A stretch of 64,000 nt of DNA from Chitinophagaceae bacterium (GTDB lineage: Bacteria > Bacteroidota > Bacteroidia > Chitinophagales > Chitinophagaceae), in the NCBI GenBank assembly GCA_027489035.1, contig JAIYAN010000001.1:145199-209198 (forward strand). The letters are read 5' to 3'. The translations under genes were made by a program, and so were the position numbers. The stretch's first letter is position 1. Each line of letters begins with the position of its first letter. The notes under the pieces were generated by a model. The model worked only from the letters and a program-made list of their open reading frames with translations, had not been told where the DNA came from and ran no database searches. Positions 6,723-55,706 of this stretch are shown piece after piece.

Positions 6723-7181
6723 CATTTAAATATTTTTATATGCTTGTGAGATTTTTAAATTACAAAATTCAAAAATTGTCACAACTTTAAATGGTTCATT
6801 TTAAAATAAAATGTTCATGCATCTTTTGAATTTGTTCGACTAACATTTTTTAATTTAATTGAACAAAGGCATAACATTTATTTAAACTATCCGTATTACT
6901 ATATTAAACAAAGATTCCAGGCGCCTTCCACCACCATCCAATCATCCTGCCACCCCAAAACTGATAAATCATCATGTATTAAATCCTGATTATCTAGATT
7001 GGTCTATGATGGATATTTTATATAGTATAGACATAGATTATTTTTAAAAATATAAATTAGGTAAAAAATGAAATGTATTTGATTTTGGAGTTATTTATTT
7101 ACTGGGTAAAGCAGATAATACACTTAAAGTTTGCTATTTTTAAAAAAATATTTAGAAATTAATTCCAAAATAATTCTTTTA

Positions 7182-7727: not shown

Positions 7728-7786
7728 ATTTAAGTGGCAACATTATTTAATTTCATTTCTAAATCTTTGTTTACTTGTTGCTTATT

Positions 7787-39712: not shown

Positions 39713-40441
39713 TTAAAAGAAAACATCTACATAATCCACCAATCTCCCGCCTTCACAATTTTCCATTTCTTGTAAACGCCAATATTTGCGACCAGGCTTA
39801 CATATAAAAATGTAGGTGCCATTTTTTATACATGGCTCTCCATTATTGTTATACGAAACCTTGGTAACAATTTCACCAATGAATTTCATTTGTCCTTTTG
39901 CAACAGGAATGAACACACCATCGATATGTACATAATTGCCTTTTTCATCTTTTTGCGAACCTTTAATGCTGTATTTATTGGCATTTATTTTTTTGATGTT
40001 AACGCTACCAAATTTCTCCCAACTAATCCATTGTAATGAAAAAAAATGCTTGCCAATTCTTGGATGTATAGGGGCATATTGTTTTGGATATTTGTGTTGC
40101 TCATTATATAATCGATTCATTTCTGCATACCGCTTGTCACGAATTTCAATTTCACGTTCTACACTATCCATTATTGGACGAAATGTTTCTTCCATTTCTA
40201 TCTTAAATAAAATAGAATCTTCTTTAGTAGGCAAATGATCATACTTTTTTGTATAACTGTAATAATTTCCATCGGCATCAAAGGTTGGAAAACTCTTTAT
40301 CACAAAACTATCTTTTGCAACATCTAATTCTTGTGCTTTAATAAAAGTTTGACTTAAAATGAGAATTGATAAAAGGAGGATAGATTTCATATTATTTAGT
40401 TTAAGATTAAGATAGAAAGGAGGATTGTAAGGTATGTACAA
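39713..40441 (-). CDS. Secreted hypothetical protein
   Basis: 242 aa; signal peptide MKSILLLSILILSQTFIKAQ starts at an internal Met (about 40390). Confidence 0.6.
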   Translation of the reverse strand: MYIPYNPPFYLNLKLNNMKSILLLSILILSQTFIKAQELDVAKDSFVIKSFPTFDADGNYYSYTKKYDHLPTKEDSILFKIEMEETFRPIMDSVEREIEIRDKRYAEMNRLYNEQHKYPKQYAPIHPRIGKHFFSLQWISWEKFGSVNIKKINANKYSIKGSQKDEKGNYVHIDGVFIPVAKGQMKFIGEIVTKVSYNNNGEPCIKNGTYIFICKPGRKYWRLQEMENCEGGRLVDYVDVFF

Positions 40442-40568
40442 TTAAAAGTTATCTTTTAAAAATTCAAACCTGTTAACATTTAATTCCTATTAAAATTCGA
40501 AACAAAAGCAGGTGAATTGAGTACTCAATAAATTAAAACCCATTCATTAGAATGTGATTTAAATTTCC

Positions 40569-41156
40569 CTATTGATTAAGTTCATCAAAAATTGATTTCA
40601 TTAAATCATAACAACCTTCATCAAAATTTTCATCCCATATTTTTCCAGCTATAATTATATATAATACTTTACAAAAAATTATTTGAAGTTCTTCATCTGG
40701 ATATTTTTTTCTTCCAATTTGTCTATTATCAAAATCAAGATCTTTAATTAACATAAATGCGTTGGCATAAATATCTGCTACCTCATCAAAACCATAATCA
40801 AGTTCTTCATAATTTGAATAATTCTCCAGGTTTTTTCTTCCTATTTCATTTACTTTTTTTAAACACGCTCTATAATTTTGATTGTAATATTTTGTTGCAT
40901 CTCCATCATTTAAATCATCAATCAATAGTATAACAGCAAAATCTCGAAATAGAGATCCTATGGTTCTTTCGCACCAAAAACTATATTTACAAAATTGCTC
41001 CAGTAAAATTGTAATTTTTCTTTCAACATCAAGATCCAATTCCTTATTTATTGAATCAATGTAAATATCAATAATCTCAGATTGATCATTTTCCGCTAAG
41101 CATTCAAAAATAGTTTTGTGCAATAATCCTTCGCTTAATTGTGCTTTTGTAATCAT
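40569..41156 (-). CDS. Hypothetical protein
   Basis: 195-aa acidic helical ORF preceded by an operator copy. Confidence 0.6.
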   Translation of the reverse strand: MITKAQLSEGLLHKTIFECLAENDQSEIIDIYIDSINKELDLDVERKITILLEQFCKYSFWCERTIGSLFRDFAVILLIDDLNDGDATKYYNQNYRACLKKVNEIGRKNLENYSNYEELDYGFDEVADIYANAFMLIKDLDFDNRQIGRKKYPDEELQIIFCKVLYIIIAGKIWDENFDEGCYDLMKSIFDELNQ

Positions 41157-41231
41157 AATAATTGATTTTTAAGTTTAAAATTGGAAAAAATAAAGAGATA
41201 AATAGTAGAAGCTTCAAATTAAGAGTCCTGC

Positions 41232-41248
41232 TTGTAATCTATCTACAA
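41232..41248 (-). promoter_or_regulatory. 17-bp palindromic operator copy, TTGTAA-TCTAT-CTACAA
   Basis: One mismatch to TTGTAA-N5-TTACAA; upstream of the 195-aa gene. Confidence 0.6.
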
Positions 41249-41311
41249 TCAGAAATTGATTCAGAATTATTTTCTGTAAAAAAGCAATAACACCATAATA
41301 TTTATTCTTGA

Positions 41312-41367: not shown

Positions 41368-41967
41368 ATGTCAACAGAAAAATTTAAAACATTTAATTTA
41401 AATGAAGTAATCTCATTTTACAAAGTAGATGAACCTTTTGGTGCATTATCCAATATGTCTGGGAAGTATTTTCATTTACATGTAAATGATTATTTAATTA
41501 GAAGTAGTGAAGCTTTATATCAAAGTTTACGGTTTACCTCACACCCCGAAATTCAAAAAGAAGTTATACTCAACAAAAGTCCAAAAGGTTCGAAAATGAT
41601 TGCGAAAAAATACAGGGCTCAATATACGAGAGCAGATTTTGATGAGATAAAATTGGAGATTATGTTTTGGTGTTTGAAAGTGAAATTATGTGCGCATCCA
41701 CTTGCTTTTGGTTCATTATTAGAAAAAACGGGTGATAAAGAAATTGTAGAAATCAGCAATAGTGATCGTTTTTGGGGATGTGTGCGTGAAAAAGGAAATG
41801 ACAATATTGTAATTGGAGAAAATAATTTGGGTGAATTGTTGATGAAACTCAGACAATATTACAGAGATAATAAAGGCAAAATGACTTTATTAAAAGTAGC
41901 TCCTTTGGATGTTGTTGATTTTAATTTATTGGGTGAGCAAATAAGGGAAGTGAGAAATGTAGGATAG
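41368..41967 (+). CDS. NADAR (YbiA-like) family protein
   Basis: 199 aa; FGALSNMS...SSEALYQSLRFTSHPEIQKEVI...NKSPKGSKMIAKKYR...MFWCLKVKL...SDRFWGC. Confidence 0.87.
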   Translation: MSTEKFKTFNLNEVISFYKVDEPFGALSNMSGKYFHLHVNDYLIRSSEALYQSLRFTSHPEIQKEVILNKSPKGSKMIAKKYRAQYTRADFDEIKLEIMFWCLKVKLCAHPLAFGSLLEKTGDKEIVEISNSDRFWGCVREKGNDNIVIGENNLGELLMKLRQYYRDNKGKMTLLKVAPLDVVDFNLLGEQIREVRNVG

Positions 41968-42003
41968 ATCTACATTTCTCATAAACATTTTAAATAAATC
42001 CCA

Positions 42004-42999
42004 TCACTTATACAACCCCACCAACCCCTCTGCCCTATTCTTCACTCGATCAATCAATTCTTGTGGAGCAAGCACTTTTACTTTTTCAGCATAACTTAAA
42101 ATAGTGCCTTCTAATTCTGGTGTTAAATAACATTCAATTTCGAGATGTAAGAAATCTTCATTATGTCCCAGTATTTTTTGAGTAGAATGCAATGGCTTGG
42201 TAAGCATATAACCAGATAAAGATTTATCAAATAACAATTCTACTTTAAAAGGCTTAGAATCGCTGTAAACCGTAGCTCCAAAACCGTATTTGAAAAAATC
42301 CTTTGCATCAAAATCTGCAGAGCGATATCCGCCTTTCATAAGCTCCATGTTTACAACTCTATCTAACGCTAAAGTAGTAATGGCTTCCGACTTTTCCGAA
42401 TAACCTGTGATGTACCAACGATTGCGGTATTCCCTGATAATGTACGCACTAAAAATATGTTGTTTCGTTTCATCACTATTAAACTTCTTGTAATCAACAT
42501 GAAGTGGCAATTTATTGATGATGCTTTCATAAGCCATTTCTATCCAGCGTAAACCTGTATCCGAAATGGGTTGTTCTACTTCAATGATTTGTCGGTTCTC
42601 ATAACCTGGAATTTGAGAAATTCTAAATCCACTTATGAGTTTATCGATAACCGATTCAAACTGATTGAAATATCCACTGTATTTAATTTGTTTAAGTATA
42701 GAGGATGACATATCCAACACTCGAATTTCATCATGTGTAAGTGGAAAACTATTTATGGAAAAATCTTCTTCTGTATAATAATAACCTCCATGAACTTTGT
42801 GGTTTTCTATCGGGGCATTATAAATATCTTTCATTGCCCTGATGTCTTTATTGATTTGAGAATCCGAAAGAGATTCCAATCCAGCACCTTCCATAATCAT
42901 TTCTTTGAGCATTTGTAAGGTTGGGTATTTGCGCATTGAATTTCTCAAACATCCATCAATGATTCTATAGCGGAAAGCAGCATTTTTATTTACGGGCAT
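42004..42999 (-). CDS. WYL-domain transcriptional regulator
   Basis: 331 aa; N-terminal HTH-like region, PLHVDYKKFNSDETKQHIFSAYIIREYRNRWYITGYSEKSEAITTLALDRVVNMEL. Confidence 0.88.
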   Translation of the reverse strand: MPVNKNAAFRYRIIDGCLRNSMRKYPTLQMLKEMIMEGAGLESLSDSQINKDIRAMKDIYNAPIENHKVHGGYYYTEEDFSINSFPLTHDEIRVLDMSSSILKQIKYSGYFNQFESVIDKLISGFRISQIPGYENRQIIEVEQPISDTGLRWIEMAYESIINKLPLHVDYKKFNSDETKQHIFSAYIIREYRNRWYITGYSEKSEAITTLALDRVVNMELMKGGYRSADFDAKDFFKYGFGATVYSDSKPFKVELLFDKSLSGYMLTKPLHSTQKILGHNEDFLHLEIECYLTPELEGTILSYAEKVKVLAPQELIDRVKNRAEGLVGLYK

Positions 43000-43103
43000 A
43001 TCGTATGTTTTTAATTTGGATTAAGCAATATATTAATTTTTGTTTATAAAATTTACAAGTAAAAAAATGAATTGTATTTATTTTAAGAAATAACTTTTTA
43101 TAA

Positions 43104-43120
43104 TTGTAAAAAGATTACAA
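43104..43120 (+). promoter_or_regulatory. 17-bp palindromic operator copy, TTGTAA-AAAGA-TTACAA, with -7 TATATTTA at 43131-43138
   Basis: Perfect palindrome arms; 10-bp spacing to the -7. Confidence 0.8.
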
Positions 43121-43180
43121 TCGCTGTTTTTATATTTAATTGTCGAATAATTCTATACTTCACCTTTAAATCTAAATGCC

Positions 43181-43402
43181 ATGTATATCAGAAATTTAGT
43201 TCGATTTAGAAGAATGAGATCCATTTTATTGGGGTTAATCATCATTAACATCATTACCCGATTTGTTGTTGATATAAATTTCAACGACAACTTTTCTTTA
43301 ATCAGTTATTTATTGGTGAGCATTATTTGGATAGATTTTGTAAGGGTATTATCTGAAGAATATGTTCAATTTATAGATGATGAAATTCGAAAAGAATCCT
43401 AA
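43181..43402 (+). CDS. Small two-TM protein
   Basis: 73 aa; two hydrophobic helices; similar to the next ORF (IIWIDFVRV vs ILWIDFLRV). Confidence 0.65.
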   Translation: MYIRNLVRFRRMRSILLGLIIINIITRFVVDINFNDNFSLISYLLVSIIWIDFVRVLSEEYVQFIDDEIRKES

Positions 43403-43422
43403 CCAATTAAATCCTATTTATT

Positions 43423-43626
43423 ATGAAAAGATTCATAGAAAGCAGATTGCTATTTTTGTTTGGTGGCATGATTTACCTCAACATATTTTTCAGCTTTTTG
43501 AAAGTCAATACACATGACGACAACTGGTTGATGATTTATTATATTTTATTGAATATCCTTTGGATAGATTTTTTAAGGGTGAGTACTAAAAAAGTTATAA
43601 AAGAAGTTATGGAAGAAACCAAATAA
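43423..43626 (+). CDS. Small two-TM protein, paralog of the upstream ORF
   Basis: 67 aa; same layout and WIDF-RV motif. Confidence 0.65.
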   Translation: MKRFIESRLLFLFGGMIYLNIFFSFLKVNTHDDNWLMIYYILLNILWIDFLRVSTKKVIKEVMEETK

Positions 43627-43630
43627 AATC

Positions 43631-43670
43631 CCTGGCTTGGACAATATTGCCAAGCCAGGAAAACTTTTTA
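43631..43670 (+). terminator. Intrinsic terminator
   Basis: CCTGGCTTGG-acaatattg-CCAAGCCAGG perfect 10-bp stem followed by aaaacttttta; 5 bp after the stop codon. Confidence 0.8.
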
Positions 43671-43773
43671 TACCGAATGGATATCTGTACTGGTCCAATA
43701 AAATTGTCCCAAACAGCTATCACAACGGCATTATACAAGAAAATTTTAGACTAATTTATAATTCAAGTTGGTA

Positions 43774-44160
43774 TCATTTAGCATTCAACATAACATAAAC
43801 AAAAGCCTCCTCAAAACGCACAACCCTGTTGTCTAGTGTGTACTTTTCTAAAATAAGTGAGCATCTATTTCTGAATTCCGAATCCATTGGAAGATATTCA
43901 AACCTTGATTTTTCTTCTCCTTTGTATTTTATTTCATCAAACCAATACCGCATTACAAATTCCCGTTTCCTTTTTGATGAATCAATTACAAATGCTTCGG
44001 TAACATCATAAGACATGATTAATTCAATTTTTTTAACTACTTTTTTCGATTCTTTTTCACCAGCACTCCCCTTTTCGATTTCTTTACTTTTTGCTTTAAT
44101 TACTTTTTTTACTTCAATTGATGTTGCATTTTCAATTGCTTTTGTTTTCATTTTTACCAT
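43774..44160 (-). CDS. Lys-rich hypothetical protein
   Basis: 128 aa; basic N-terminal tail and acidic/aromatic C-terminal domain. Confidence 0.5.
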   Translation of the reverse strand: MVKMKTKAIENATSIEVKKVIKAKSKEIEKGSAGEKESKKVVKKIELIMSYDVTEAFVIDSSKRKREFVMRYWFDEIKYKGEEKSRFEYLPMDSEFRNRCSLILEKYTLDNRVVRFEEAFVYVMLNAK

Positions 44161-44412
44161 AGTTTAAATTTTAATTTTTTAAATAATTAACAATAAAAAT
44201 TCAGCTAAGAACTTAATTACATTACCAATATGTCAAAGAACTAATTGCTATATCGATATATTAGATATCAATATTTAATTTCAGAATCGGCATTTGAAAA
44301 CATACTTCTCCTGATACAACTTTTTTTGTTGTTAAGCGATAAATGATTAATGAATGGGAATTAGAAGACGAGGTTGAAATTGAAATTCATGAAGCGAATA
44401 TAGAAATGCTGA

Positions 44413-44429
44413 TTGTAATGTATTTACAA
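44413..44429 (-). promoter_or_regulatory. 17-bp palindromic operator copy, TTGTAA-TGTAT-TTACAA; minus-strand -7 TATATTCG at 44395-44402
   Basis: Perfect arms; 10-bp spacing to a -7 on the minus strand. Confidence 0.65.
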
Positions 44430-44571
44430 TGAAGAAATAAATTTATTGTTTATTGTTTATTGTTTGGGGTTTGTTGTTTGGGGTTTGGGGTTGGAATGAA
44501 ATACTATCTGGCATCCTTTATCCAGTATCCAGAATCTTACAAAAATGAAAAAGCTGACCTTTTTATTTCAC

Positions 44572-44973
44572 TCAATTCTGATATACCCCCAACCAATCTC
44601 TATACAAATAATAATAATTCGGGTAAGTTGTGAAAAATAATTGCTTAGATAAAGTACCTGATATTTGAGAAACGATATAATTGTATATCTCCGAAACTTG
44701 TTCGTTTGTAATTTCATTATTCTCCGTATCGGTTACGAAAACATTATCCCCATCAAATGCCATATCTATCAATGCTATTTCATCTCTGAAAAAAGCATCT
44801 ATCATTTCTTGAGTCGTATTGATCACAAAATACTCGGATTTGAATTTCAATATCAATACCATTTTAAGGTGGCCTATTTTTTTATACAAACCAAGTTGCA
44901 TATTGCCATCATTATCCATTAACAAATATCCGAGCGGACCTACTGCCTCATAATTTTTGAATGTAATTTTCAT
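44572..44973 (-). CDS. Hypothetical protein
   Basis: 133 aa; start overlaps the upstream ADP-ribosylglycohydrolase stop by 26 nt. Confidence 0.6.
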   Translation of the reverse strand: MKITFKNYEAVGPLGYLLMDNDGNMQLGLYKKIGHLKMVLILKFKSEYFVINTTQEMIDAFFRDEIALIDMAFDGDNVFVTDTENNEITNEQVSEIYNYIVSQISGTLSKQLFFTTYPNYYYLYRDWLGVYQN

Positions 44974-45895
44974 TGAGATCGATTTTATCTAAAAGGTTAT
45001 TAATTAAATGTTGACTGGCAATTTTATTTCTCCAATCTAATGGAATATCTTCTATCCCATAATACAACCCAGCCAAACCACCTGTTATTGCTGCAATGGT
45101 ATCGGTATCTCCACCTAAATTTACAGCTTTCAAAACAGCATCTTTATAATTATCGGTATTTAAAAAACACCAAATCGAAGCTTCCAATGTGCTCAATACA
45201 TATCCTGTAGATTTGATTTCAGATTCGGGTAAAGCAGCGAAATCAGCTTTGAATAAAAGTTTAAACCATTCCCATTCTGCTTCGTGATCATCATCGCTAT
45301 CGGTAATCCGCCAACCATGTTTCAGATAGGCAGCTCCAGCTTTTACCGCTTCCAATTTATCTTTTCCATCTAACAAAGCACGCATCATTTTTACGTAAAA
45401 CATACAACAATACGAACAAATACTGTTGCGATGGGTAATGTTGTTTTCTCTTGTCATATTAAAAACTGACTTATTAATATCTTCCACAAAAGCATAAGGC
45501 AAAGCCCTCATTAAGCTTCCATTACCTGAAGAATTTTCATCATTACCTCCTGCTAATCCGGGCTTTACCCCAATCATCACTTTCTGTAGCGCACGACTTG
45601 TTGTAATACCAATATCAAATAGTTCGCCGTGTGGCGTCATATAATCATCGCGATACCACTTTACAAACAATTCAGCAAGCGAATGTATATCACCATCGTT
45701 AATGATATTTTCCAAAACACATAAAAGCATGGAAGTGTCATCACTCCAGGTTCCGGGTGGCTGGTTGTACGTTCCATAACCCACCATATCCACTGCGGGA
45801 TTTTCTTTCATCATGTTACGCGTAGAAAATTCATAGGGTACGCCTAATGCATCTCCAACCACAAAACCCCAAAGGGCATCTTTTATGTTTTTCAT
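44948..45895 (-). CDS. ADP-ribosylglycohydrolase family protein (DraG-like)
   Basis: 315 aa; GFVVGDALGVPYEF, GTWSDDTSMLLCVLENI, GNGSLMRALPYAF, NLGGDTDTIAAITGGLAGLYYG. Confidence 0.93.
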   Translation of the reverse strand: MKNIKDALWGFVVGDALGVPYEFSTRNMMKENPAVDMVGYGTYNQPPGTWSDDTSMLLCVLENIINDGDIHSLAELFVKWYRDDYMTPHGELFDIGITTSRALQKVMIGVKPGLAGGNDENSSGNGSLMRALPYAFVEDINKSVFNMTRENNITHRNSICSYCCMFYVKMMRALLDGKDKLEAVKAGAAYLKHGWRITDSDDDHEAEWEWFKLLFKADFAALPESEIKSTGYVLSTLEASIWCFLNTDNYKDAVLKAVNLGGDTDTIAAITGGLAGLYYGIEDIPLDWRNKIASQHLINNLLDKIDLNENYIQKL

Positions 45896-45995
45896 TTTAT
45901 TAATTTAAAATTCAAAAGTTAAAATTTAAAATATCTGTTTATTGTTTTTTTAATTTATAAATATGGCATGTAGTTAGCTTTTTACTTTTTACTTT

Positions 45996-46643
45996 TCACT
46001 TTTTACTTTTTATTTTATTGAAATACCCCCATAATAAATTAGCCCCTTTAAAATTCGCATTCCACACAAAATGATTTTCTTCTAACGTTCTTTCTAAAAC
46101 TAAATCATAAAAAGAAAGCCCATCGGAGATTTTGATTTGTTTAACATATTCAATTGCTTCTGGCTTTTTCTTATTCCAATCTTTTCTTAGTGTAACAATA
46201 TCATAATTTGAATTGGATGGCAATTTGGAATATATCTGTTCAAATTGATGCGCATATAAAATATAACCATAAGTTGGTTTTAGGATTTCATCCAGTTGAG
46301 ATATCGTTTTAAATGATTTTGAATTGTTGATTAAATCAATTGGATTGTAATTTGAAATGGTGCTATAATAAGTAAGCGCAAATATTATAGAATCGTAATT
46401 CAATTCTGGCAAATGTGATAACAGTTCTTTTAATGGTGGCAATTGCGAAACCCTTGATGATAATGATTCCCCACCTTTTGAATGAATTAATACAATGGGC
46501 TTAGGTAAATCTAGGCTAATCAAAAATTCATAATTAAAATCATACTTCTCATCATTACTAGATCCAATATTTTCTGAATTAAATTTTTCAAGTTTGATTA
46601 TTTTTTGAGACAATGGAAGTTCTTTAATCAGATTGTTATTCAT
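45996..46643 (-). CDS. Hypothetical protein
   Basis: ORF 45996..46664 has a TTG at 46664; the first ATG (MNNNLIKELP) is at 46643. Confidence 0.55.
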   Translation of the reverse strand: MNNNLIKELPLSQKIIKLEKFNSENIGSSNDEKYDFNYEFLISLDLPKPIVLIHSKGGESLSSRVSQLPPLKELLSHLPELNYDSIIFALTYYSTISNYNPIDLINNSKSFKTISQLDEILKPTYGYILYAHQFEQIYSKLPSNSNYDIVTLRKDWNKKKPEAIEYVKQIKISDGLSFYDLVLERTLEENHFVWNANFKGANLLWGYFNKIKSKK

Positions 46644-46679
46644 TGATGGACTTATTTTCCACAATGTTAAAATTCACTT

Positions 46680-46696
46680 TTGTACTCTATTTACAA
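46680..46696 (-). promoter_or_regulatory. 17-bp palindromic operator copy, TTGTAC-TCTAT-TTACAA; minus-strand -7 TAACATTG at 46662-46669
   Basis: One mismatch; 10-bp spacing; upstream of the 222-aa ORF and ADP-ribosylglycohydrolase operon. Confidence 0.7.
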
Positions 46697-46723
46697 TGAA
46701 AATTTTTCTTTTATTTTTTTAAA

Positions 46724-46740
46724 TTGTAAAAAGATTACAA
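46724..46740 (+). promoter_or_regulatory. 17-bp palindromic operator copy, TTGTAA-AAAGA-TTACAA, with -7 TAGGTTTG at 46751-46758
   Basis: Identical to the 43104 copy; perfect -7 at 10-bp spacing. Confidence 0.85.
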
Positions 46741-46859
46741 TCAGATATTCTAGGTTTGATTTCAAATACATTATCCACCTTTAATATTATCAACATCAAT
46801 TAAATCATTGCATTTCAAAACCAAGTTCAACTAATTTTTTAACCATTAAAAAAAACATT

Positions 46860-47045
46860 ATGAATAAAATAAGAATAAGCAATTTGCTTTCTAAATTTTT
46901 GGGAATGTCGGTAATTAATGAACTTTTCTTTTTATTTATCCGGTTCAAAGGAATCGACACAATAGCATTTTCAACCTATATTACTTTGATATTTGGATGG
47001 TGTTTTTTTGTGGAGTATAAATATAGGCAAGTAGAAAATTCATGA
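46860..47045 (+). CDS. Small two-TM protein
   Basis: 61 aa; two hydrophobic helices; operator-preceded. Confidence 0.5.
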   Translation: MNKIRISNLLSKFLGMSVINELFFLFIRFKGIDTIAFSTYITLIFGWCFFVEYKYRQVENS

Positions 47046-47120
47046 GTTATTTTCTAATAATTCGATTTGATTTTTTATAGGGTAAAATCTAAAGAGAGAT
47101 ATTTCTTTATTCACCACAGA

Positions 47121-49895
47121 TTAAATGTCATCTTGAACAGTTTTCAACAAAATATCTTGAAAATATGTTTTTCTAATTGACCTCTGATCTCCAATCATTT
47201 TAATTGCTTCATCTGCAACCATTTTTACTAAATCTTTTTCGCCAATTTCATTTAATTTCAAAGCGGCCAAATAAAATGATTCAATAGGTAAATTATCGAT
47301 TTTCTTTATGGTCGATTTTTCTTTTTGCAATAATATGTATTGGATTTTTTCTTGGATAATCGAAGTTTCAATTTTTTTATTTGACAAACAATAATACATC
47401 AATTCAATATTAGCCATTTGGCTTTGTTGATTTGGCTTTGTTGATTCATTAATGAGTGATTTTGCTAAGGTATAATATTGCTCTCGTTCTGAATCTTTCA
47501 TCAAAGAAAACAATCGGTGTATTGAGCCAAATATTTCTAGATTGTCATTTAATTCTATGTTTAATAATAAGGCCTCTGAATATAATATTCTAGCTATTTC
47601 TATTTCTCCATTTTCAAAATTCAAAATACCAAGGCTATTCAAACTCAAAGCTATTCCTTTTTTATCCCCTAATTTTCTTCTGATTTCCAAAGATTCTTGA
47701 TGTAATCTCGCTACTTCATCAATTTTCCCTCGCTCTTCGTATATATTCGCGAGTTTATTCAATACAATACTTATTCCTTTTTTATCTCCTAATTTTCTTC
47801 TGATTTCCAAAGATTCTTGATAGAAATTCTCTGCCTCTTCAAATTCCCCTTGCCCCATGTATAGTTCCCCAAGATAAAATAAAACAATGCCTGTTCCTTT
47901 TTTATCCCCTAATTGTTTTCTAAAATCCAAAGATTCTAGAAATAATCTTTCTGCTTCATCAATTTTCCCTTGCTTTTTGTATAAGCCCCCTAGGTTAAGC
48001 AATACATAACTTGTTCCTAATTTATCCCCTAATTGTTTTCTAATTTCCAAAGATTCTAGATACAACTTTTCTGACTCTTGAAATTTGCCTTGTTCTGAGT
48101 ATAAAAAACCAAGATTACTCAAACTTTCTCCGATTCCTTTTTTATCGCCTAATTGTTTTCTAATTTCCAAAGATTCTAGGTATAACTTTTCTACTTTATC
48201 TTTTTTATTTTGTGAGTTATAAACCACGCCTATATCATTAATTATATTAGCTTGTAGTTTTATGAATTTATTTTGTTTTGATAATTCTAAACCCAATAAA
48301 AAACAATTTAATGATTCATTATAATTTCTTTGATGATATTCTAATTCGCCCATTTTTATATATAAATTGCAAAGGCCATAGAAATCTTCGATTGCTTTCT
48401 TTTCATTTATAATAAAATCAAATTTTTCTTTTGCTTGTGTATATCTACCTTGAAGCGTATCAAGTTGTGCGTCAAAAAGTAATAAATCACTAAGGATTTT
48501 TTTATTATTCAACAGTGTTGCTTCTTTTTGTGCTATTTCCATTGCGAGACTAAAAAAGTCAAAGTTTCCAGTAGTGTAGAACTTATCGACCAATATAATA
48601 AGTATCTCCAAATCTGTATTTCCAGGGTTTTCAGGAAAACGTTTTATTACTGATTCAAACTGAACATAATTTTCGATAGCTAGCGAAAATAAAATGTTAG
48701 CAATCATTTCAGCAGATAGTTTCTGTATTTCTTGCGTTTCATTATCTGCAAGGTCAGATATTTCAATCAGTACTTCTGTTTGGTCATTATTACAAAATCT
48801 CAACACAATCATTTCAACGGCTCCTTGTAATATTTTAAATTCCGCTATCCGATTAAATAATTTCATCACATCTTTTGCATCATTCACTTTTGAAAAATGC
48901 AACTCTGCCAACATGAATTCAAGAAATCGATCAAAAGAAAAACGAACAAAACAATCATCTTTTTCCCATTCTTCCATTAACACCCCAAGTTCTAGTAACT
49001 GAATATATGGGCTGTCTTTTTGTGTATTTATTATGTATGATTTGAACGAATCCATTTTTATGAGTGCATCTCGTTCTAATCGTTCACTATTTTGTTTATC
49101 TAATTCTCTTACCAACAAACTTAAAAGTTTAAGTCGCTCAGGAAATCCAGCGGATTCATTTGTCTTTTCTATTATGATATTATCCAAATAGAGACGCATC
49201 GCTTCATCATTTTTTAACTGCGATGGTAATTTTGAGCGATGAAAAGATTGCAAAATCAATCTAGTCATGAGTGGATTTCGAAGCAATTCTATAGTAGTTC
49301 CATTCGAATCTAATTCTGAGAAATTTGTTAGTGGCCTATATTTATATATCCCTTCATCATCTAAAACTCCAGAATCTTTCCATTTGAAATTACGATAAGC
49401 ATTAAAGAGTTGTTCTGTAGAGTTTTTTGCAACAGGTTTAAGGCGCACTACATTTGATGATATCTTTTCACCAGCTTTTTCTTCTTCAACTTTGAAATAT
49501 TGATCAGGTGCTATTTCTCCGAATTTTGCGAGAGTCCTACTATATGCACTATCCCGAATACTCACAATCACTTTAAACCAGCTGTAATTAGATGATTGAG
49601 CAACAATGTTCTCAACCGATTTTATCAAATCGTTTATACTACCAGAATATTCATTCAAGGCATCAATAATCAAATAACAATTTCGATTAGATGTAGAAAA
49701 AAGATTATCAGTCAAACTCAAAAACTCTTCGAGGTAATTTAGTTTCAAAGCACAATCCCGAAGAAATTTACTTGCAATATCTGTTTGATTCAAAGCACTA
49801 CCACGATAAAACATAACCATATGTCCTTCACCATGCCATAATTCAGTTTTTTGGGCAAGCAAAGTACTTTTGCCAATTCCGCTCTCCCCACCCAA
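47121..49895 (-). CDS. STAND NTPase plus TPR protein; apparently frameshifted from the upstream ORF
   Basis: 924 aa; begins at GGESGIGKSTLLAQK (P-loop); YLIIDALNEYSG; 40-aa TPRs LGDKKGIGESLSNLGFLYSEQGKFQESEKLYLESLEIRKQ. Frame continues upstream without ATG (SSNAIQALITSGKYLREATVERADLNEYLDAFSSSTFNGFVLGGESG). Confidence 0.8.
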   Translation of the reverse strand: MGGESGIGKSTLLAQKTELWHGEGHMVMFYRGSALNQTDIASKFLRDCALKLNYLEEFLSLTDNLFSTSNRNCYLIIDALNEYSGSINDLIKSVENIVAQSSNYSWFKVIVSIRDSAYSRTLAKFGEIAPDQYFKVEEEKAGEKISSNVVRLKPVAKNSTEQLFNAYRNFKWKDSGVLDDEGIYKYRPLTNFSELDSNGTTIELLRNPLMTRLILQSFHRSKLPSQLKNDEAMRLYLDNIIIEKTNESAGFPERLKLLSLLVRELDKQNSERLERDALIKMDSFKSYIINTQKDSPYIQLLELGVLMEEWEKDDCFVRFSFDRFLEFMLAELHFSKVNDAKDVMKLFNRIAEFKILQGAVEMIVLRFCNNDQTEVLIEISDLADNETQEIQKLSAEMIANILFSLAIENYVQFESVIKRFPENPGNTDLEILIILVDKFYTTGNFDFFSLAMEIAQKEATLLNNKKILSDLLLFDAQLDTLQGRYTQAKEKFDFIINEKKAIEDFYGLCNLYIKMGELEYHQRNYNESLNCFLLGLELSKQNKFIKLQANIINDIGVVYNSQNKKDKVEKLYLESLEIRKQLGDKKGIGESLSNLGFLYSEQGKFQESEKLYLESLEIRKQLGDKLGTSYVLLNLGGLYKKQGKIDEAERLFLESLDFRKQLGDKKGTGIVLFYLGELYMGQGEFEEAENFYQESLEIRRKLGDKKGISIVLNKLANIYEERGKIDEVARLHQESLEIRRKLGDKKGIALSLNSLGILNFENGEIEIARILYSEALLLNIELNDNLEIFGSIHRLFSLMKDSEREQYYTLAKSLINESTKPNQQSQMANIELMYYCLSNKKIETSIIQEKIQYILLQKEKSTIKKIDNLPIESFYLAALKLNEIGEKDLVKMVADEAIKMIGDQRSIRKTYFQDILLKTVQDDI
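47640..48210. repeat. Tandem 120-bp TPR-coding repeats
   Basis: ttttttatcccctaattttcttctgatttccaaagattcttga about 47660 repeated at 120-bp steps with variants. Confidence 0.85.
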
Positions 49896-49993
49896 TACAA
49901 ATCCATTAAAAGTGCTCGAACTAAAAGCATCTAAATATTCATTTAGATCTGCTCTTTCAACAGTTGCTTCACGAAGATATTTTCCAGAAGTAA

Positions 49994-51163
49994 TTAATGC
50001 TTGAATTGCATTGGAGCTAATGTTTTACCTAAAGAATGTAAAATTTCAATTGATAGATTTTTCTCATCAACTAATTCAACATCCATTTGCTTTTGTGCGA
50101 GCAAATCTTTCCAATGCTGAAAGCGTGTTGTTTTTTCAAGATGTTCGCCTGATGAAGAAAGATAAATGACCGTATTTTTTGTGTTGCCCTCAAAAACAAA
50201 AACATCTTTACCCATTTCTGGCAATCCTATTTCATTAGTCACCTCTACATCAAAAAACGCATATAACGGGAGAATTTCTCCTGTAGAATCATTGATGATA
50301 AATAGTGGGGAAATAGCTGGGTTTACGCTATCTCGGGTGAAATCAACTTTGCTTAGTGCAGGGTTTGAACCCATTAGACGGATACCATTAACTCCATTTT
50401 TGCTAGATTCAACATGCCAAAGTGTATATCTAGACATATAGCGTACTTCTTGTAAAATCTCTGCAAGTAAAGGATAGTATTCATCAAACTCTTTCTGCGC
50501 TCTTTCTTTACTTTGATTAAATCCATGCGCTAATCCATTTCTATAATTAATGAGCGCTTGTATTTTGCCAAGTTTCTTTGTTTTGTTTTTTATGTTTCCA
50601 TTTTCATCACTATATGATTGTGTAACTAGAAAAGGATCTTTACACTTACTTTCTAATTTTTCATACGCGTTTTTAATTTCTGGTGAAAACAATCGAATCC
50701 CTTTATCTTTAAAAACAGGTAAAGCGCGTGCAATCAATAAATTCCAAGCAGAAATAAGTGGACGTGAAAGATCCTTAACAAGCGTTTGATGAATTTGAAC
50801 ATCTTTCAAATCGGGAGTACGGATATATTCACTTGCTAATTGAAGAGACATATATTTTAAAATAGCCGTGAATGTATCAACCATTAATTTGCATTTCATT
50901 CGCGGATCGGTTTCACTTAAAAGATCGCTAAATGGCCTTGCAATAAGATAAGGATACGAGGAAACAACCTCTTGTTCAAAAGAAGTAAATTCTTTTTTAA
51001 TTGAATTAGAATCTATCGGGTTTACGGATGGAATAATTGTATTTGTTATTCCTGGTTTTATTGGAATAATCCCTTCATTTGAAATAAACTTTACTTCACC
51101 TGTAAATGTGTCTAGCACATAAAGTCCATTTGATGCTAAAAACCCTTCGAATCTTTTTTCCAT
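49994..51163 (-). CDS. N-terminal (HEPN-like) region of the STAND protein, separate ORF
   Basis: 389 aa; homologous to the N-terminal part of the 1219-aa STAND (SSYPYLIARPFSDLLSETDPRMKCKLMVDTFTAILKYM; INYRNGLAHGF). Confidence 0.7.
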   Translation of the reverse strand: MEKRFEGFLASNGLYVLDTFTGEVKFISNEGIIPIKPGITNTIIPSVNPIDSNSIKKEFTSFEQEVVSSYPYLIARPFSDLLSETDPRMKCKLMVDTFTAILKYMSLQLASEYIRTPDLKDVQIHQTLVKDLSRPLISAWNLLIARALPVFKDKGIRLFSPEIKNAYEKLESKCKDPFLVTQSYSDENGNIKNKTKKLGKIQALINYRNGLAHGFNQSKERAQKEFDEYYPLLAEILQEVRYMSRYTLWHVESSKNGVNGIRLMGSNPALSKVDFTRDSVNPAISPLFIINDSTGEILPLYAFFDVEVTNEIGLPEMGKDVFVFEGNTKNTVIYLSSSGEHLEKTTRFQHWKDLLAQKQMDVELVDEKNLSIEILHSLGKTLAPMQFKH

Positions 51164-51280
51164 GTCTTAAATTACTTTATACAATTACAATATAATATAT
51201 TTATAATTTTTCATCAGGTCTTGATAATTTAGCTTCACATTAAAAAGCACACTACCCTGAGTTTGCACCTAAATTCATAA

Positions 51281-52129
51281 TCAAGCGAAATCACACGGAC
51301 TGATATCTGTAATTTCTCCAGAAAGCGTAGGAATATCCTCTTTAATGCTCTCAATCATATTTTCAAGATCTGTCTGCATTTCCATCTGATCATCTGTCAG
51401 GTCTTCCCAATCTTCAACATTTTCTTCCAATTCCCTGTGCGTATCGCCCAAAGCTTCAAAATTTGAAAATATAGAGTCGATTCTTTCTGCCACATCGTAC
51501 TTCTTGAATTTTTTCAAGTAATTATCTGCTTGCTTTTCGGTTAAACCTTCGGCATTAAAAACAAAACTTCTGTTATTACGACCAAGTCCAAATGCAATAA
51601 ATTGATTTGTGACAGAATTGAAAATTCCTACTATAGGAGCATGTTGAAACGGAGGGAAAATATGATCCTGAAATCCCTTTATTAATTTTTTATTAAGTAA
51701 TTGAATAATTGCATTGTAATTATCTTCAGAGTCGTGATACCCACCACCATGTGCTTTTAATGGGAATATGAATAAATGGCTTTTATACTCAGGTGGTAGT
51801 TTAGAAATTTTTGACTTGTAAAACGCCAACGATTCTGGATCTCCATATAAATCAAAAACAATACTTTTCTTCACCAGGTCAAGTATTTCGTTATCGAATT
51901 CAGTTTTTGTTTTATCAATTTTATTTACCGTTTGTTTAGTTTTAGAAACTGGTTCTGATTTATTGCTTTTTTTGACTGTTCCAGTTTTTTTAGCAGCCTT
52001 GCTTTTAGAAGTAGTAGATAGATTATTTGATAACTTGTCAGTCTTAGATACAGTTTTCAAAACCTTAGGGGTGTCTCCTGTTTTTACAGAGGTGCCTTTT
52101 TTTGTAGGCTTAGTTGATTTTTTAGCCAT
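51281..52129 (-). CDS. Hypothetical protein with Lys/Thr/Ser-rich N-terminal tail
   Basis: ORF 51281..52177; internal ATG at 52129 (MAKKSTKPTKKGTSVKTGDTPK) is the more likely start. Confidence 0.6.
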   Translation of the reverse strand: MAKKSTKPTKKGTSVKTGDTPKVLKTVSKTDKLSNNLSTTSKSKAAKKTGTVKKSNKSEPVSKTKQTVNKIDKTKTEFDNEILDLVKKSIVFDLYGDPESLAFYKSKISKLPPEYKSHLFIFPLKAHGGGYHDSEDNYNAIIQLLNKKLIKGFQDHIFPPFQHAPIVGIFNSVTNQFIAFGLGRNNRSFVFNAEGLTEKQADNYLKKFKKYDVAERIDSIFSNFEALGDTHRELEENVEDWEDLTDDQMEMQTDLENMIESIKEDIPTLSGEITDISPCDFA

Positions 52130-52390
52130 ATTATTTTTTTTGAAATTTAAGATAAAAAAAGGAATTACAAATACCATTTAGATACCTTTCGTACTTTTCA
52201 TTATTTTCAGGTACAAAAAAAGAAATTGAGTTTTCTGATTTATCAAATGTGATTAGTTAGATTTTTGTGATCCTTTTTTCGGACTGATGAACAGATTTAT
52301 TTTGTTTATCAACAAAATGGCAAAAACACCAAAAGACAATCCCCAAATAAAACACCCCTTAACAAAACTTTACCAACCTCATCCCCCATT

Positions 52391-52407
52391 TTGTAAAAAC
52401 ATTACAA
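52391..52407. promoter_or_regulatory. 17-bp palindromic operator copy, TTGTAA-AAACA-TTACAA
   Basis: Perfect arms; second copy upstream of the AAA+ gene; no clear -7. Confidence 0.6.
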
Positions 52408-52520
52408 TTTGATTTCGGATTTTTATCCCGAATCAAAAAATAAATAGTAATGGAAAGTAAAACCCCAAAAAACAGAAATCCACAGACAAAATTTTAATCT
52501 GAATTTTTTATTTTTTTGGA

Positions 52521-52537
52521 TTGTACAAAGATTACAA
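52521..52537 (+). promoter_or_regulatory. 17-bp palindromic operator copy, TTGTAC-AAAGA-TTACAA, with -7 TATGTTTG at 52548-52555
   Basis: One mismatch; perfect -7 at 10-bp spacing. Confidence 0.8.
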
Positions 52538-52593
52538 TCACGGATTTTATGTTTGTCCTCCACCATCATTATCCACTTATAAATCCTTTCATT

Positions 52594-54273
52594 ATGTTCA
52601 ACATTAATCAATCCAACAACAACGTTCTTGATGCTATTGAGCAAATTTATTGCATCACAAAAGACAGTACGCTAACATTTGATATGAGTAAGGAAACAAA
52701 ACTATCAACATGGTTAGATACCCTAAAATCGTTTTTTAATTGCGATGAGGAACAAGCTATTTTATTGTCGATAATGATACAATCCAATTTAGAAAACAAT
52801 AATGTTAGCATAAAAGAAATTTTAGACCATGCCAATTTAAAAACCTCGGCTTCTTTATATATAAATAATGTACTTGCGCCATTGGTGAAACTCGAGTGGA
52901 TTTCGCCTAAAAAAGATGTAAAATTTTATCCGCTTACCGAATACAACATCAGCAACAAACTGATACGTTCTGTTTTAACAGGAAAATTAGAAATGAGCAA
53001 TGAAGTTAAAATTGAAAACTCTTTTCAACTACTTTCTCATTTTCAAATGAGGTTGGGCGAAAAAAATCACAAACGCATTTCTTATGCCGAATTCATAAAA
53101 TGGACAAATGAATTATTGAATACACATGCGTCAATTGAATTATCTGATTTTATTTTAAAAATGAATATGCCTGAAGATGATGCTACGCATTTCATGTATG
53201 CTTGCTCGAGATTTTATACTGGACAGGAAGAATCAGATCATGATGACATCATTAGAGATTTAACCCCTCCTAAAGATGTTCAATACAAATTGAGGAATTC
53301 ATTCAAATCCGGTTCCAACTTTTTAATCAAATCGGAGTTGATTAAAGAAACTGTTAGTGATGATATGTTTAAAAGCACATCTTATTCACTTACTGAAAAA
53401 GCCGTTCGTGCATTTGACAAAACAGCTGTTGTGAAAAATAAAATGGTTGAAGGGATGATGAAACATTTGGAACCTAATGCCATTACAGAAAAGAAATTAA
53501 TATTCGATAGCAACGAACAAAAATTGGTCAACAAATTACATAACATGTTGAGTGTTGATAATTTTTCCCAACTAACCGAAAGATTAGAAAGTCAGGGCAT
53601 GAAAAAAGGCATAAGTGTTTTATTATATGGTTATCCTGGTACTGGTAAAACTGAAACAGTATTGCAACTGGGAAAAAACAGCAACCGATATATCATGATG
53701 GCTGACGCCAGTAAAATTAGAAGCAAATGGGTGGGTGAAACCGAAAAAAACATGAAGGCATTGTTTGATGAATATAGAAAAGCAATGATAGATTTTAAAG
53801 AAACCCCAATTCTATTGTTTAATGAAGCAGATGCGATTTTAGGAAAACGACATACGGTAACCGATCGTGGCGATCAGATGGAAAATGCCATGCAGAATAT
53901 TCTGTTGCAAGAGCTTGAAAATTTCGAGGGTATATTTATTGCAACAACAAACTTGGTTGACAATTTAGACAAAGCATTTGACAGAAGGTTTCTATATAAA
54001 ATTAGATTTGAAAAACCAGGGGCACAAACGTTGATTCAAATTTGGAAATCGAAATTCCCAAAGATTAAAACGGGGATATTGAAAAACATCTGTGCTAAAA
54101 TAAATTTAACTGGTGGACAAATTGAAAATATCCGTAAAAAGATTGCCGTAGATTCTTTGCTAGATGACAAGTTAAAAATAAATGAAAACTATTTAATGCA
54201 ATTGGCACAACAAGAAATGATGTTGGAGAAAAAGAATGAAAGAAATGCAATAGGATTCAATAAGGGAATATAA
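52594..54273 (+). CDS. AAA+ ATPase (classical AAA, FtsH/CDC48-like module) with unknown N-terminal region
   Basis: GISVLLYGYPGTGKTETVLQLGK, SKWVGETEKNMKALFDEY, PILLFNEADAILGKR, ATTNLVDNLDKAFDRRFLYKI; ATG at 52594 (MFNINQ) preferred. Confidence 0.88.
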   Translation: MFNINQSNNNVLDAIEQIYCITKDSTLTFDMSKETKLSTWLDTLKSFFNCDEEQAILLSIMIQSNLENNNVSIKEILDHANLKTSASLYINNVLAPLVKLEWISPKKDVKFYPLTEYNISNKLIRSVLTGKLEMSNEVKIENSFQLLSHFQMRLGEKNHKRISYAEFIKWTNELLNTHASIELSDFILKMNMPEDDATHFMYACSRFYTGQEESDHDDIIRDLTPPKDVQYKLRNSFKSGSNFLIKSELIKETVSDDMFKSTSYSLTEKAVRAFDKTAVVKNKMVEGMMKHLEPNAITEKKLIFDSNEQKLVNKLHNMLSVDNFSQLTERLESQGMKKGISVLLYGYPGTGKTETVLQLGKNSNRYIMMADASKIRSKWVGETEKNMKALFDEYRKAMIDFKETPILLFNEADAILGKRHTVTDRGDQMENAMQNILLQELENFEGIFIATTNLVDNLDKAFDRRFLYKIRFEKPGAQTLIQIWKSKFPKIKTGILKNICAKINLTGGQIENIRKKIAVDSLLDDKLKINENYLMQLAQQEMMLEKKNERNAIGFNKGI

Positions 54274-54356
54274 AAATAATACTCGCCTTCGACTTTAACC
54301 GTGGGCGATTTAAAAAAAATAAATAATTCGGAATATTTTTATGAATGATTTTTCAT

Positions 54357-54373
54357 TTGTAAATACAATACAA
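54357..54373 (+). promoter_or_regulatory. 17-bp palindromic operator copy, TTGTAA-ATACA-ATACAA, with -7 GAGATTTG at 54384-54391
   Basis: One mismatch; 10-bp spacing. Confidence 0.65.
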
Positions 54374-54463
54374 TCACTAATCTGAGATTTGATTTCTAAA
54401 AAAACCATGAAAAAATAACACTCTCCAAACTCGATTTTATTGTAAACTTCAAATGTAAACATT

Positions 54464-55036
54464 ATGAAATCGATTCCTTATTGCCCAATTGCACGAAAAA
54501 AAAGACACACCATTAGTACACCAAAAGTTGAATGGAAAAGATACCGACCAAATAGATATTTATATCATGTTAGTTATGGCGGTACATTAAATGTAAATGA
54601 AGAAAATGTATTGTATAAACGACTGAGTATAGCTACCGAAGGAATTTGTGGAAAAGAAAAAGGTTTGGGTGGTGTATGGGCAAACAATCAGATTAAAAGG
54701 GTAAATCATTTATGGCCCATTTGTTTTGACAGTTGGGACTGTGATTCACATGAATCCTATTTAAAGATGTTGTACAAATATGATGTTTGGCAAATTGACA
54801 CCAAACTAATTGACAATATTTGGTATTTAGATCCGAATTTGATAGAAGGAAATGATGGAAGTGGCGACGCTACAGATTATTTGTATTGCGAAAATACCAT
54901 TCATCCTCGTGCATTAAAATTATATACATTTACCATTAATGATTATAAGTTTTTGTATGAAGACAAATTCAATGTTGAATTTAGTTTAGATCCAGTAGAA
55001 AACATAAATAATTTTATTAAAACTAAATGGTGGTAA
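54464..55036 (+). CDS. Hypothetical protein, possibly ADP-ribosyltransferase-fold-like
   Basis: 190 aa; RYLYHVSYGGTL...IATEGICG...GGVWANNQ...YDVWQIDT...WYLDPNL...YLYCENTIHPRALKLYTF recalls the H..T / I..EGI / Y / IxP layout of ART/KptA-like folds; weak by-eye call. Confidence 0.4.
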   Translation: MKSIPYCPIARKKRHTISTPKVEWKRYRPNRYLYHVSYGGTLNVNEENVLYKRLSIATEGICGKEKGLGGVWANNQIKRVNHLWPICFDSWDCDSHESYLKMLYKYDVWQIDTKLIDNIWYLDPNLIEGNDGSGDATDYLYCENTIHPRALKLYTFTINDYKFLYEDKFNVEFSLDPVENINNFIKTKWW

Positions 55037-55079: not shown

Positions 55080-55706
55080 ATGCTCATTCCACTTATTATA
55101 GGCAAAAACAGTAATGGCGATAACCAGATGATTGATTTAGCTCAGTCGCCGTTATTGATGATTTCATATTGCGAAGAGGAGCAGTTAAAGAACATTGTTA
55201 CACAATTAACCAATTTAGATTACCCTTTTAAACAATCTGATTATTATATTGTGTCAAGTAGAAAATGTGCGTACTGGAATATTGATTTGCAACATGCCAT
55301 TCATTTTTATAAAGACGATCCAAGTAAAGGTAACATCAACAAAAAATCGAAATTACTAAAAATTATAAATGATGAAATCTCCAGAAGAGAACGGATTTTA
55401 AAAAAGAATAAAGGAATAGATTTTAAAAGGTACTTTTCATTAAACACCTGGAAAGATGAAAAACTTTCTTACCAATTTTTTATAATTGATGACATTTGGG
55501 ATATCGTAATTTCCAAACCTAAAACGATTGGATTAAGTTTGATGCGCATCATTTTATACGGAAGCGATGTTGGCATTCATACTATATTTACCAGCAAATT
55601 GTCTTATAGAAATTTACTTGAACAATTAATCAATATCAATCCTTCCATTACTAAAGAGTTACAAAAAAATATGGGGTGCCTGAGCCTAAAAGAATCAACA
55701 GTATAG
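55080..55706 (+). CDS. Degenerate FtsK/HerA-like ATPase lacking Walker A; C-terminus in another frame
   Basis: 208 aa; IPLIIGKNSNGDNQMIDLAQSPLLMISYCEEEQL..., IINDEISRRERIL, YQFFIIDDIWDIV, IILYGSDVGIHTIFTSK align with FtsK blocks; RINSIGHELLFTADNIVFHKKAGSMEMARMYF follows in the -1 frame to about 55789. Confidence 0.55.
   Translation: MLIPLIIGKNSNGDNQMIDLAQSPLLMISYCEEEQLKNIVTQLTNLDYPFKQSDYYIVSSRKCAYWNIDLQHAIHFYKDDPSKGNINKKSKLLKIINDEISRRERILKKNKGIDFKRYFSLNTWKDEKLSYQFFIIDDIWDIVISKPKTIGLSLMRIILYGSDVGIHTIFTSKLSYRNLLEQLININPSITKELQKNMGCLSLKESTV

What the first reader, a model, noticed from the sequence alone, without database searches (positions are those of the whole stretch)
41368..55036. ADP-ribose-themed gene set under one operator: NADAR, ADP-ribosylglycohydrolase and a possible ART-like protein
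NADAR (41368..41967) and the DraG-like hydrolase (44948..45895) are families linked to ADP-ribose processing or reversal, including removal of ADP-ribose from nucleic acids by some NADAR proteins. The 190-aa protein at 54464 has a layout (YHVS..GT, I..EGI, WYLDPN, ENTIHPRALKLY) that recalls ART/KptA folds. All three, or the operons containing them, start at copies of the same palindrome. This suggests a co-regulated ADP-ribosylation/de-ADP-ribosylation circuit, possibly writer plus two erasers.
Basis: partly seen in the sequence, partly recalled or inferred. Interest (0 to 1): 0.72.

Follow-up and report, generated by a model that had tools for sequence, protein, structure and literature searches.

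The report
WYL-controlled defence regulon with shared promoters
The shared palindrome is not the mark of an ADP-ribose toxin/antidote circuit: it is one half of a fixed promoter module, probably switched by a neighbouring DNA-damage-sensor-like (WYL) protein, that drives about a dozen mostly unrelated anti-phage and DNA-repair genes, two of which happen to encode ADP-ribose-removing enzymes.

Summary
The genes and palindrome are real: NADAR (41368), an ARH/DraG hydrolase (44948), the 190-aa gene (54464), and 12 copies of a 21-bp palindrome, all upstream of genes. The 'ADP-ribose circuit' reading fails on specificity. The palindrome fronts about a dozen transcription units, mostly unrelated to ADP-ribose, plus two DNA-repair/defence operons on another contig. 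Copies are joined to the Bacteroidota -7 element (TAnnTTTG) at a constant 8 bp, with no -33 element. The composite recurs in three related genomes and at least two other genera. The likely controller is the WYL regulator at 42004-42999, whose model best matches DriD, an ssDNA-responsive activator that binds a palindrome over the -35 at fixed distance from the -10. I propose a DriD-like, damage-responsive activator driving a modular defence regulon; a BrxR/CapW-like repressor is the rival. The ART claim for the 190-aa protein found no support (AlphaFold pLDDT 29, no Pfam/PDB hit, profile comparison at decoy level); it is untested rather than refuted. NADAR is absent from relatives that carry the 190-aa gene. 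DraG travels with the island; WYL-linked ARH systems were predicted in 2022. WYL-operator binding, the sign of control and enzyme substrates are inferred.

The parts
42004..42999 (-). WYL transcription regulator (wHTH-WYL-WCX), likely controller of the regulon
   Evidence: Pfam WYL 1.5e-8 and WCX 7.8e-10; AF2 pLDDT 81, best fold match DriD 3.9e-13; 97% and 78% identical orthologues in the two relatives with complete islands
41368..41967 (+). NADAR-family hydrolase; cargo unit, present in this genome only among the four compared
   Evidence: PF08719 3.3e-22; NF053876 3.1e-59
44948..45895 (-). ARH/DraG ADP-ribosylglycohydrolase, second gene of a three-gene operon
   Evidence: PF03747 8.2e-74; Lmo0067 1.4e-73; WSDDT, TH, GDTDT motifs; only ARH of the genome
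45996..46643 (-). First gene of the DraG operon, unknown function, conserved with DraG in three genomes
   Evidence: 82% and 33% orthologues before DraG
44572..44973 (-). Third gene of the DraG operon (133 aa, overlaps DraG by 26 nt), unknown function
   Evidence: 60% orthologue in G807
52549..54273 (+). AAA+ ATPase (IetA-like AAA domain), most widely conserved target
   Evidence: Pfam AAA 2.6e-25; IetA PADLOC 1.2e-29; homologues beside WYL genes in six other genomes
54464..55036 (+). 190-aa protein; ART resemblance not supported
   Evidence: no Pfam/PDB match; AF2 pLDDT 28.6; hhalign at decoy level
55080..55706 (+). FtsK/SpoIIIE-EssC-like protein without recognisable Walker A, frameshifted near its end
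   Evidence: EssC 6.9e-5; alignment with relatives
56589..57935 (+). Coiled-coil protein, RmuC-like by eye only (no Pfam match), target gene
   Evidence: no Pfam match; own composite promoter
40423..40443 (-). Operator of 39713-40390
   Evidence: 20.0 bits; -7 TATCTTAA at 8 bp
41230..41250 (-). Operator of 40569-41156
   Evidence: 21.1 bits
41310..41330 (+). Operator of NADAR; -7 CATATTTG at 8 bp
   Evidence: 20.0 bits
43102..43122 (+). Operator before small membrane-protein genes 43181/43423, 103 bp upstream of the divergent WYL gene
   Evidence: 24.1 bits; position conserved in G807, G808
44411..44431 (-). Operator of 43774-44160
   Evidence: 23.1 bits
46678..46698 (-). Operator of the DraG operon; -7 TAACATTG at 8 bp
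   Evidence: 17.0 bits
46722..46742 (+). Operator of 46860-47045; -7 TAGGTTTG at 8 bp
   Evidence: 24.1 bits
52389..52409 (-). Operator of 51281-52177 and the HEPN-NACHT genes behind it
   Evidence: 17.9 bits; weak -7
52519..52539 (+). Operator of the AAA+ gene; -7 TATGTTTG at 8 bp
   Evidence: 24.9 bits
54355..54375 (+). Operator of the 190-aa gene; -7 GAGATTTG at 8 bp
   Evidence: 18.8 bits
56472..56492 (-). Operator of 55825-56448; -7 TACTTTTG at 8 bp
   Evidence: 16.4 bits
56517..56537 (+). Operator of 56589-57935; -7 TAAGTTTG at 8 bp
   Evidence: 23.2 bits

Best explanation
A defence and DNA-repair regulon run by one WYL transcription factor through a portable composite promoter. Shown by sequence: units start at a 21-bp palindrome (GATTGTAAATAGATTACAATC on the promoter strand) followed after 8 bp by the Bacteroidota -7 element TAnnTTTG; with its T at -12, the palindrome covers about -41 to -21 and stands in place of a -33 element. 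Inferred: the WYL protein at 42004-42999 binds it as a dimer and, like DriD, activates RNA polymerase when its WYL domain binds ssDNA or another nucleic-acid signal of phage attack or DNA damage. Target genes are exchangeable cargo. NADAR and DraG are two such cargo units, most likely removing ADP-ribose placed on host RNA, DNA or protein by phage or toxin transferases, and are not dedicated antidotes to the 190-aa protein.
For: Twelve sites, all intergenic. TAnnTTTG matches at least 5/6 positions at offset 8 in 28 of 42 oriented sites and in 0-3 at any other offset from 0 to 25. The 8-bp spacer differs almost randomly between window sites (4.8 of 8) and no TTG lies at -37 to -29 in any of 23 sites, so distance, not spacer sequence, is kept. 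Composite hits with at most 1 mismatch: 10 in G000, all in this island or on contig C8; 10 of 11 in the island of G807; 9 of 9 in G808. C8 targets: an SbcD/SbcC-like pair and a helicase/HNH/HIT/NUDIX operon. Cargo varies between relatives: UvrD-PDDEXK, UDG-superfamily and Brig1-like glycosylases, DUF2779. The composite recurs before the AAA+ gene of G383 and two genes of G260. The WYL gene is 97% and 78% identical in the two relatives with the island, with a site about 100-115 bp upstream. DriD is the best fold match. DriD binds ATACGAC-N7-GTCGTAT overlapping -35 at constant distance from -10 at promoters with poor -35 (PMC12340889); the -7 consensus is from PMC6847099.
Against: No binding or expression data. 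Motif and spacing are scored on the sites they came from, though the C8, G383 and G260 hits were outside the training set. The fold match is over a model with uncertain domain arrangement (TM about 0.5, pTM 0.57), so DriD over CapW/BrxR rests on E-values and promoter geometry. G383 carries the composite with no WYL gene in the 12 kb read, and a WYL paralogue lies 4 kb from the C8 site, so another regulator could own the operator. A repressor could also show constant spacing if units spread together with their promoters.
Confidence: 0.5

Rival explanations
1. Same regulon, opposite sign: the WYL protein is a BrxR/CapW-like repressor that occludes the promoters and is released by a phage-induced ligand.
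For: BrxR and CapW are WYL repressors of defence genes that bind roughly 20-27-bp palindromes in promoters (PMC9122601, PMC9122588); the WYL model matches CapW and BrxR at 4e-9 and 1e-8; a protein covering -41 to -21 could block sigma.
Against: Constant 8-bp distance with a diverged spacer and no -33 element is expected for an activator and not needed for a repressor; DriD/PafBC score better in sequence and fold.
Confidence: 0.3
2. ARH-centred counter-ADP-ribosylation system in the sense of Iyer et al. 2022: the core is DraG plus its WYL regulator and NADAR, reversing ADP-ribose put on host molecules by phage transferases; the other genes are add-ons.
For: Section 3.8 of PMC9503650 predicts ARH + WYL or Nudix regulator, sometimes with NADAR, without a linked transferase; ARH and NADAR motifs are intact here; DraG is kept in three islands; no KptA or DarT family hit in this genome.
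Against: NADAR is in one of four genomes; the AAA+ gene associates with WYL genes in six other genomes without DraG in the stretch read; of 19 other ARH loci read in the order none had a WYL homologue of this one and one had a NADAR nearby.
Confidence: 0.13
3. One reading: the 190-aa protein is an ADP-ribosyltransferase whose modification is reversed by DraG and NADAR.
For: Short motif resemblance seen by eye (YHxS, GVWA, WYLDPN, ENTIHPRAL); DraG and the 190-aa gene co-occur in three genomes.
Against: No Pfam match at E up to 10 in any of four orthologues, no PDB match, AF2 failed (pLDDT 28.6), hhalign to KptA and DarT gives probabilities 0.2 and 0.1, like the DraG (0.2) and WYL (1.2) decoys; NADAR absent from relatives with the 190-aa gene; operator not specific to these genes.
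Confidence: 0.07

Closest known systems
DriD (Caulobacter crescentus WYL activator) and PafBC
   Same: wHTH-WYL-WCX class; pseudo-palindrome with a 7-bp centre and a conserved G in each half-site; site over the -35/-33 region at fixed distance from the -10/-7; several scattered targets including DNA-repair genes
   Different: Different half-site sequence; Bacteroidota -7 element; most targets clustered in a defence island with exchangeable cargo; activation and ssDNA binding not shown here
BrxR and CapW, WYL repressors of phage defence
   Same: WYL regulator inside a defence island, palindromic operators in promoters
   Different: Those described control one or two promoters next to the regulator gene; here twelve sites in the island plus two on another contig, at constant distance from the -7 element
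ARH-centred systems with WYL/Nudix regulators (Iyer et al. 2022, PMC9503650)
   Same: ARH gene near a WYL regulator, NADAR in addition, no linked known transferase
   Different: Described from actinobacteria, planctomycetes and proteobacteria; no phosphatase or ARPP gene recognised beside the ARH here; ARH is one of about a dozen co-regulated units
NADAR anti-phage family (NCBIfam NF053876, DS32_2)
   Same: Full-length match, 3.1e-59
   Different: 199 bits, below the curated cut-off of 240; no partner gene of that system identified here
Lmo0067 (PDB 8za7), ARH family
   Same: Aligns over nearly the whole length, 1.4e-73, same metal-site motifs
   Different: Different gene context; substrate of the window protein unknown

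Membership tests
ARH/DraG ADP-ribosylhydrolase | ADP_ribosyl_GH domain over its length with the metal-site motifs | tested here: met
   PF03747 8.2e-74, profile 2-285/287; WSDDT at 50, TH at 154, GDTDT at 262
ARH/DraG ADP-ribosylhydrolase | removes ADP-ribose from a substrate | not testable with these tools
   needs an enzyme assay
NADAR | NADAR domain over its length | tested here: met
   PF08719 3.3e-22, profile 2-160/163; YbiA 2b3w 2.9e-7
NADAR anti-phage family NF053876 | score above the curated cut-off (240 bits) | tested here: not met
   199.1 bits, full length
ADP-ribosyltransferase (190-aa protein) | sequence or profile match to an ART family | tested here: not met
   Pfam none at E up to 10; PDB none; hhalign vs KptA and DarT at decoy level
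ADP-ribosyltransferase (190-aa protein) | ART fold | tested here: inconclusive
   AF2 with 4 near-identical sequences, pLDDT 28.6; no fold search run on such a model
WYL regulators of the DriD class | wHTH + WYL + WCX fold | tested here: met
   Pfam WYL and WCX; AF2 pLDDT 81; Foldseek DriD 3.9e-13
WYL regulators of the DriD class | palindromic site over -35/-33 at fixed distance from -10/-7, with poor -35/-33 | tested here: met
   DriD description; that this WYL protein binds the site was not tested
WYL regulators of the DriD class | ssDNA-dependent activation | not testable with these tools
   needs biochemistry
BrxR/CapW repressors | WYL regulator encoded with defence genes, palindrome in their promoters | tested here: met
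BrxR/CapW repressors | represses its target genes | not testable with these tools
   needs a reporter assay
ARH-centred systems (Iyer et al. 2022) | ARH with WYL or Nudix regulator and no linked known transferase | tested here: met
   WYL at 42004; no KptA or DarT family hit in the genome
ARH-centred systems (Iyer et al. 2022) | phosphatase or predicted TY-chaperone coupled to the ARH (frequent, not universal) | tested here: inconclusive
   no phosphatase in the operon; its two partner genes have no family match above cut-off
DarT-NADAR toxin-antitoxin | DarT gene next to NADAR | tested here: not met
   no DarT (PF14487) in the genome

The most novel reading that the evidence does not exclude
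A DriD-like, ssDNA- or damage-sensing WYL activator is the master switch of an exchangeable defence arsenal in Bacteroidota: a 37-bp palindrome-plus-promoter module acts as a plug by which unrelated defence genes, in the island and on another contig, join one damage-triggered regulon, a phage-defence counterpart of the SOS response.
Probability: 0.4. Interest if true: 0.7.

Novelty: new variant of a known kind. Interest (0 to 1): 0.5.

Why it matters
How bacteria switch on whole sets of defence systems, rather than single operons, is poorly known; the WYL regulators of defence that I could read about act on one or two promoters. A composite promoter with constant spacing, shared by about ten or more units per genome and kept between species while the cargo changes, gives a searchable signature for finding further members of the regulon, including defence genes with no recognisable domain, and makes the activator-or-repressor question directly testable. 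It also warns against reading function from shared regulation: two ADP-ribose hydrolases under one operator do not make an ADP-ribose circuit.

Tried and rejected
190-aa protein: relatives sought in GTDB contigs (3 found, all Chitinophagaceae), 399 genomes of the order (none but its own), 396 of the phylum (only weak partial matches, mostly with stops), viral contigs, phages and plasmids: none usable for a deep alignment. The AF2 model was useless, so no fold search was run on it. hhalign against KptA and DarT alignments built from other genomes gave decoy-level scores; with four near-identical query sequences this test has little power. De novo palindromes upstream of 20 more distant WYL genes gave no shared operator. 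A purely repressive BrxR-like model was my first reading; the constant spacing, the absent -33 element and the DriD description changed it. PADLOC found AbiE and IetA-like matches but no named system covering the finding. Literature on Lmo0067 was not held.
Full report
What was checked. The window is C9:145199-209198 of a 3.04-Mb Bacteroidota genome; the genomes closest to it by this locus are Chitinophagaceae MAGs. The NADAR and ADP-ribosylglycohydrolase assignments are firm and their characteristic motifs are intact (the roles of those residues rest on general knowledge of the families). The 190-aa protein has no Pfam, NCBIfam, PADLOC or PDB match and only a chance-level PHROG match.

The operator. 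ATTGTA-N7-TACAAT occurs perfectly six times in the genome, five times within 12 kb of this window; 59 related genomes searched have 0-4 scattered copies each. A matrix built from 12 window sites gives 16.4 bits or more at each of them and only 0-2 hits at 11 bits or more in shuffled windows. All 12 are wholly non-coding where 14% of the stretch is non-coding. Four divergent intergenic regions hold two sites, one for each promoter (41230/41310, 46678/46722, 52389/52519, 56472/56517).

The promoter. Read towards the downstream gene, TAnnTTTG begins exactly 8 bp after the 21-mer: at least 5 of 6 positions match in 28 of 42 oriented sites (a list that includes both directions of ambiguous sites), against 0-3 at every other offset. 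TAnnTTTG is the -7 element of Bacteroidota promoters, with its T at -12 (PMC6847099), which puts the palindrome at about -41 to -21. No TTG starts between -37 and -29 in any of 23 sites, and the 8-bp spacer differs by 4.8 of 8 bases on average between window sites while the 21-mer is far more alike. The distance is kept; the spacer sequence is not.

The regulon. A pattern of palindrome plus -7 element with at most one mismatch finds 10 places in G000 (eight in this island, two on contig C8), 11 in G807 (ten in its island) and 9 in G808 (all in its island); the reversed control pattern gives about ten per genome, but at the looser limit of two mismatches. The C8 places stand before an SbcD-like/SbcC-like pair and before a 96-aa gene followed by HNH, HIT, NUDIX and PLD-helicase-DUF3427 genes. 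In relatives the island is syntenic but the cargo changes: a UvrD-PDDEXK helicase-nuclease, a UDG-superfamily gene, a Brig1-like glycosylase, a DUF2779 protein. A matrix trained on island sites also finds the composite before the AAA+ homologue of G383 and before two genes of G260, both in other genera (24.6-32.5 bits, against one hit of 15 bits or more in 352 kb of shuffled sequence).

What is conserved. WYL (97%, 78% identity), DraG (91%, 70%), the gene before DraG (82%, 33%), AAA+, the 190-aa gene and the FtsK-like gene are shared by the three complete islands. NADAR is in the window genome only. Outside these close relatives the 190-aa gene is absent from the other genomes drawn from the order. 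Homologues of the AAA+ gene do occur there and lie beside or near a WYL gene in six genomes (L155, L156, L157, L159, L160, L161), followed by rmuC in two of them, and with an FtsK-like relative and rmuC nearby in a third; none has a DraG, NADAR or 190-aa relative in the stretch read. WYL plus AAA+ looks like the older association and the ADP-ribose enzymes like accessories.

The regulator. The WYL protein was modelled from 23 sequences at pLDDT 81, pTM 0.57. Foldseek ranks DriD first (3.9e-13), then PafBC (7.2e-13), CapW (4.4e-9) and BrxR (1e-8); a profile search of PDB sequences ranks PafBC and DriD (1e-16, 2e-14) above BrxR and CapW structures. [quoted passage not shown] The same layout here is the main reason to prefer activation. 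A repressor of the CapW/BrxR kind (PMC9122588, PMC9122601) is not excluded. That this WYL protein binds this operator is inferred from co-occurrence: a site keeps its place about 100-115 bp upstream of the WYL gene in three genomes, and loci of more distant WYL genes lack strong palindromes.

The ADP-ribose question. Iyer and colleagues predicted WYL- or Nudix-controlled ARH systems, at times with NADAR, that would undo phage ADP-ribosylation (PMC9503650), and NADARs reverse guanosine ADP-ribosylation of RNA (PMC11833690). A counter-ADP-ribosylation role for the two hydrolases as cargo is therefore reasonable and needs no writer in the locus. The proposed writer has no support: the AF2 model failed and profile comparison with KptA and DarT gave decoy-level scores. 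Neither result disproves an ART fold, because only four near-identical homologues were found.

Verdict.

Noticed in passing
window 55080-55706: FtsK/SpoIIIE-like gene without recognisable Walker A is out of frame by one base in an A-run near its end; three relatives have an intact longer form (236-240 aa).
   Followed up: yes
window 47121-51163: Two ORFs (389 aa HEPN-like and 924 aa NACHT/TPR) look like one broken gene, homologous over both parts to the intact 1219-aa gene at 33961-37620.
   Followed up: partly
L049 and L107 (contig C8 of the same genome): Second defence locus: SbcC/SbcD-like pair and PLD-helicase-DUF3427/NUDIX/HIT/HNH operon under the same composite promoter, near a reverse transcriptase and a WYL paralogue.
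   Followed up: partly
L155, L156, L157, L159, L160, L161: AAA+ gene of this family beside or near a WYL regulator in six genomes, with rmuC next to it in two and near it in a third: possibly an undescribed WYL-AAA(-RmuC) module.
   Followed up: partly
L098 (G077) 2025-7879: ARH gene, EcoRI-type adenine methylase and an above-cut-off anti-phage NADAR (NF053876) within 6 kb in another family of the order.
   Followed up: no
L006 10018-10983: Relative of the anti-phage DNA glycosylase Brig1 (4.7e-14, below cut-off) in the G808 island, near a weak operator copy.
   Followed up: no
window 37640-39278: AbiEi/AbiEii pair (abortive infection) beside the island, without an operator copy of its own.
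   Followed up: no
window about 46767-46778 and 52565-52576: The two leaders behind the 46722 and 52519 promoters share ATTATCCAC, which resembles a DnaA box; also seen in the G807 copies.
   Followed up: no
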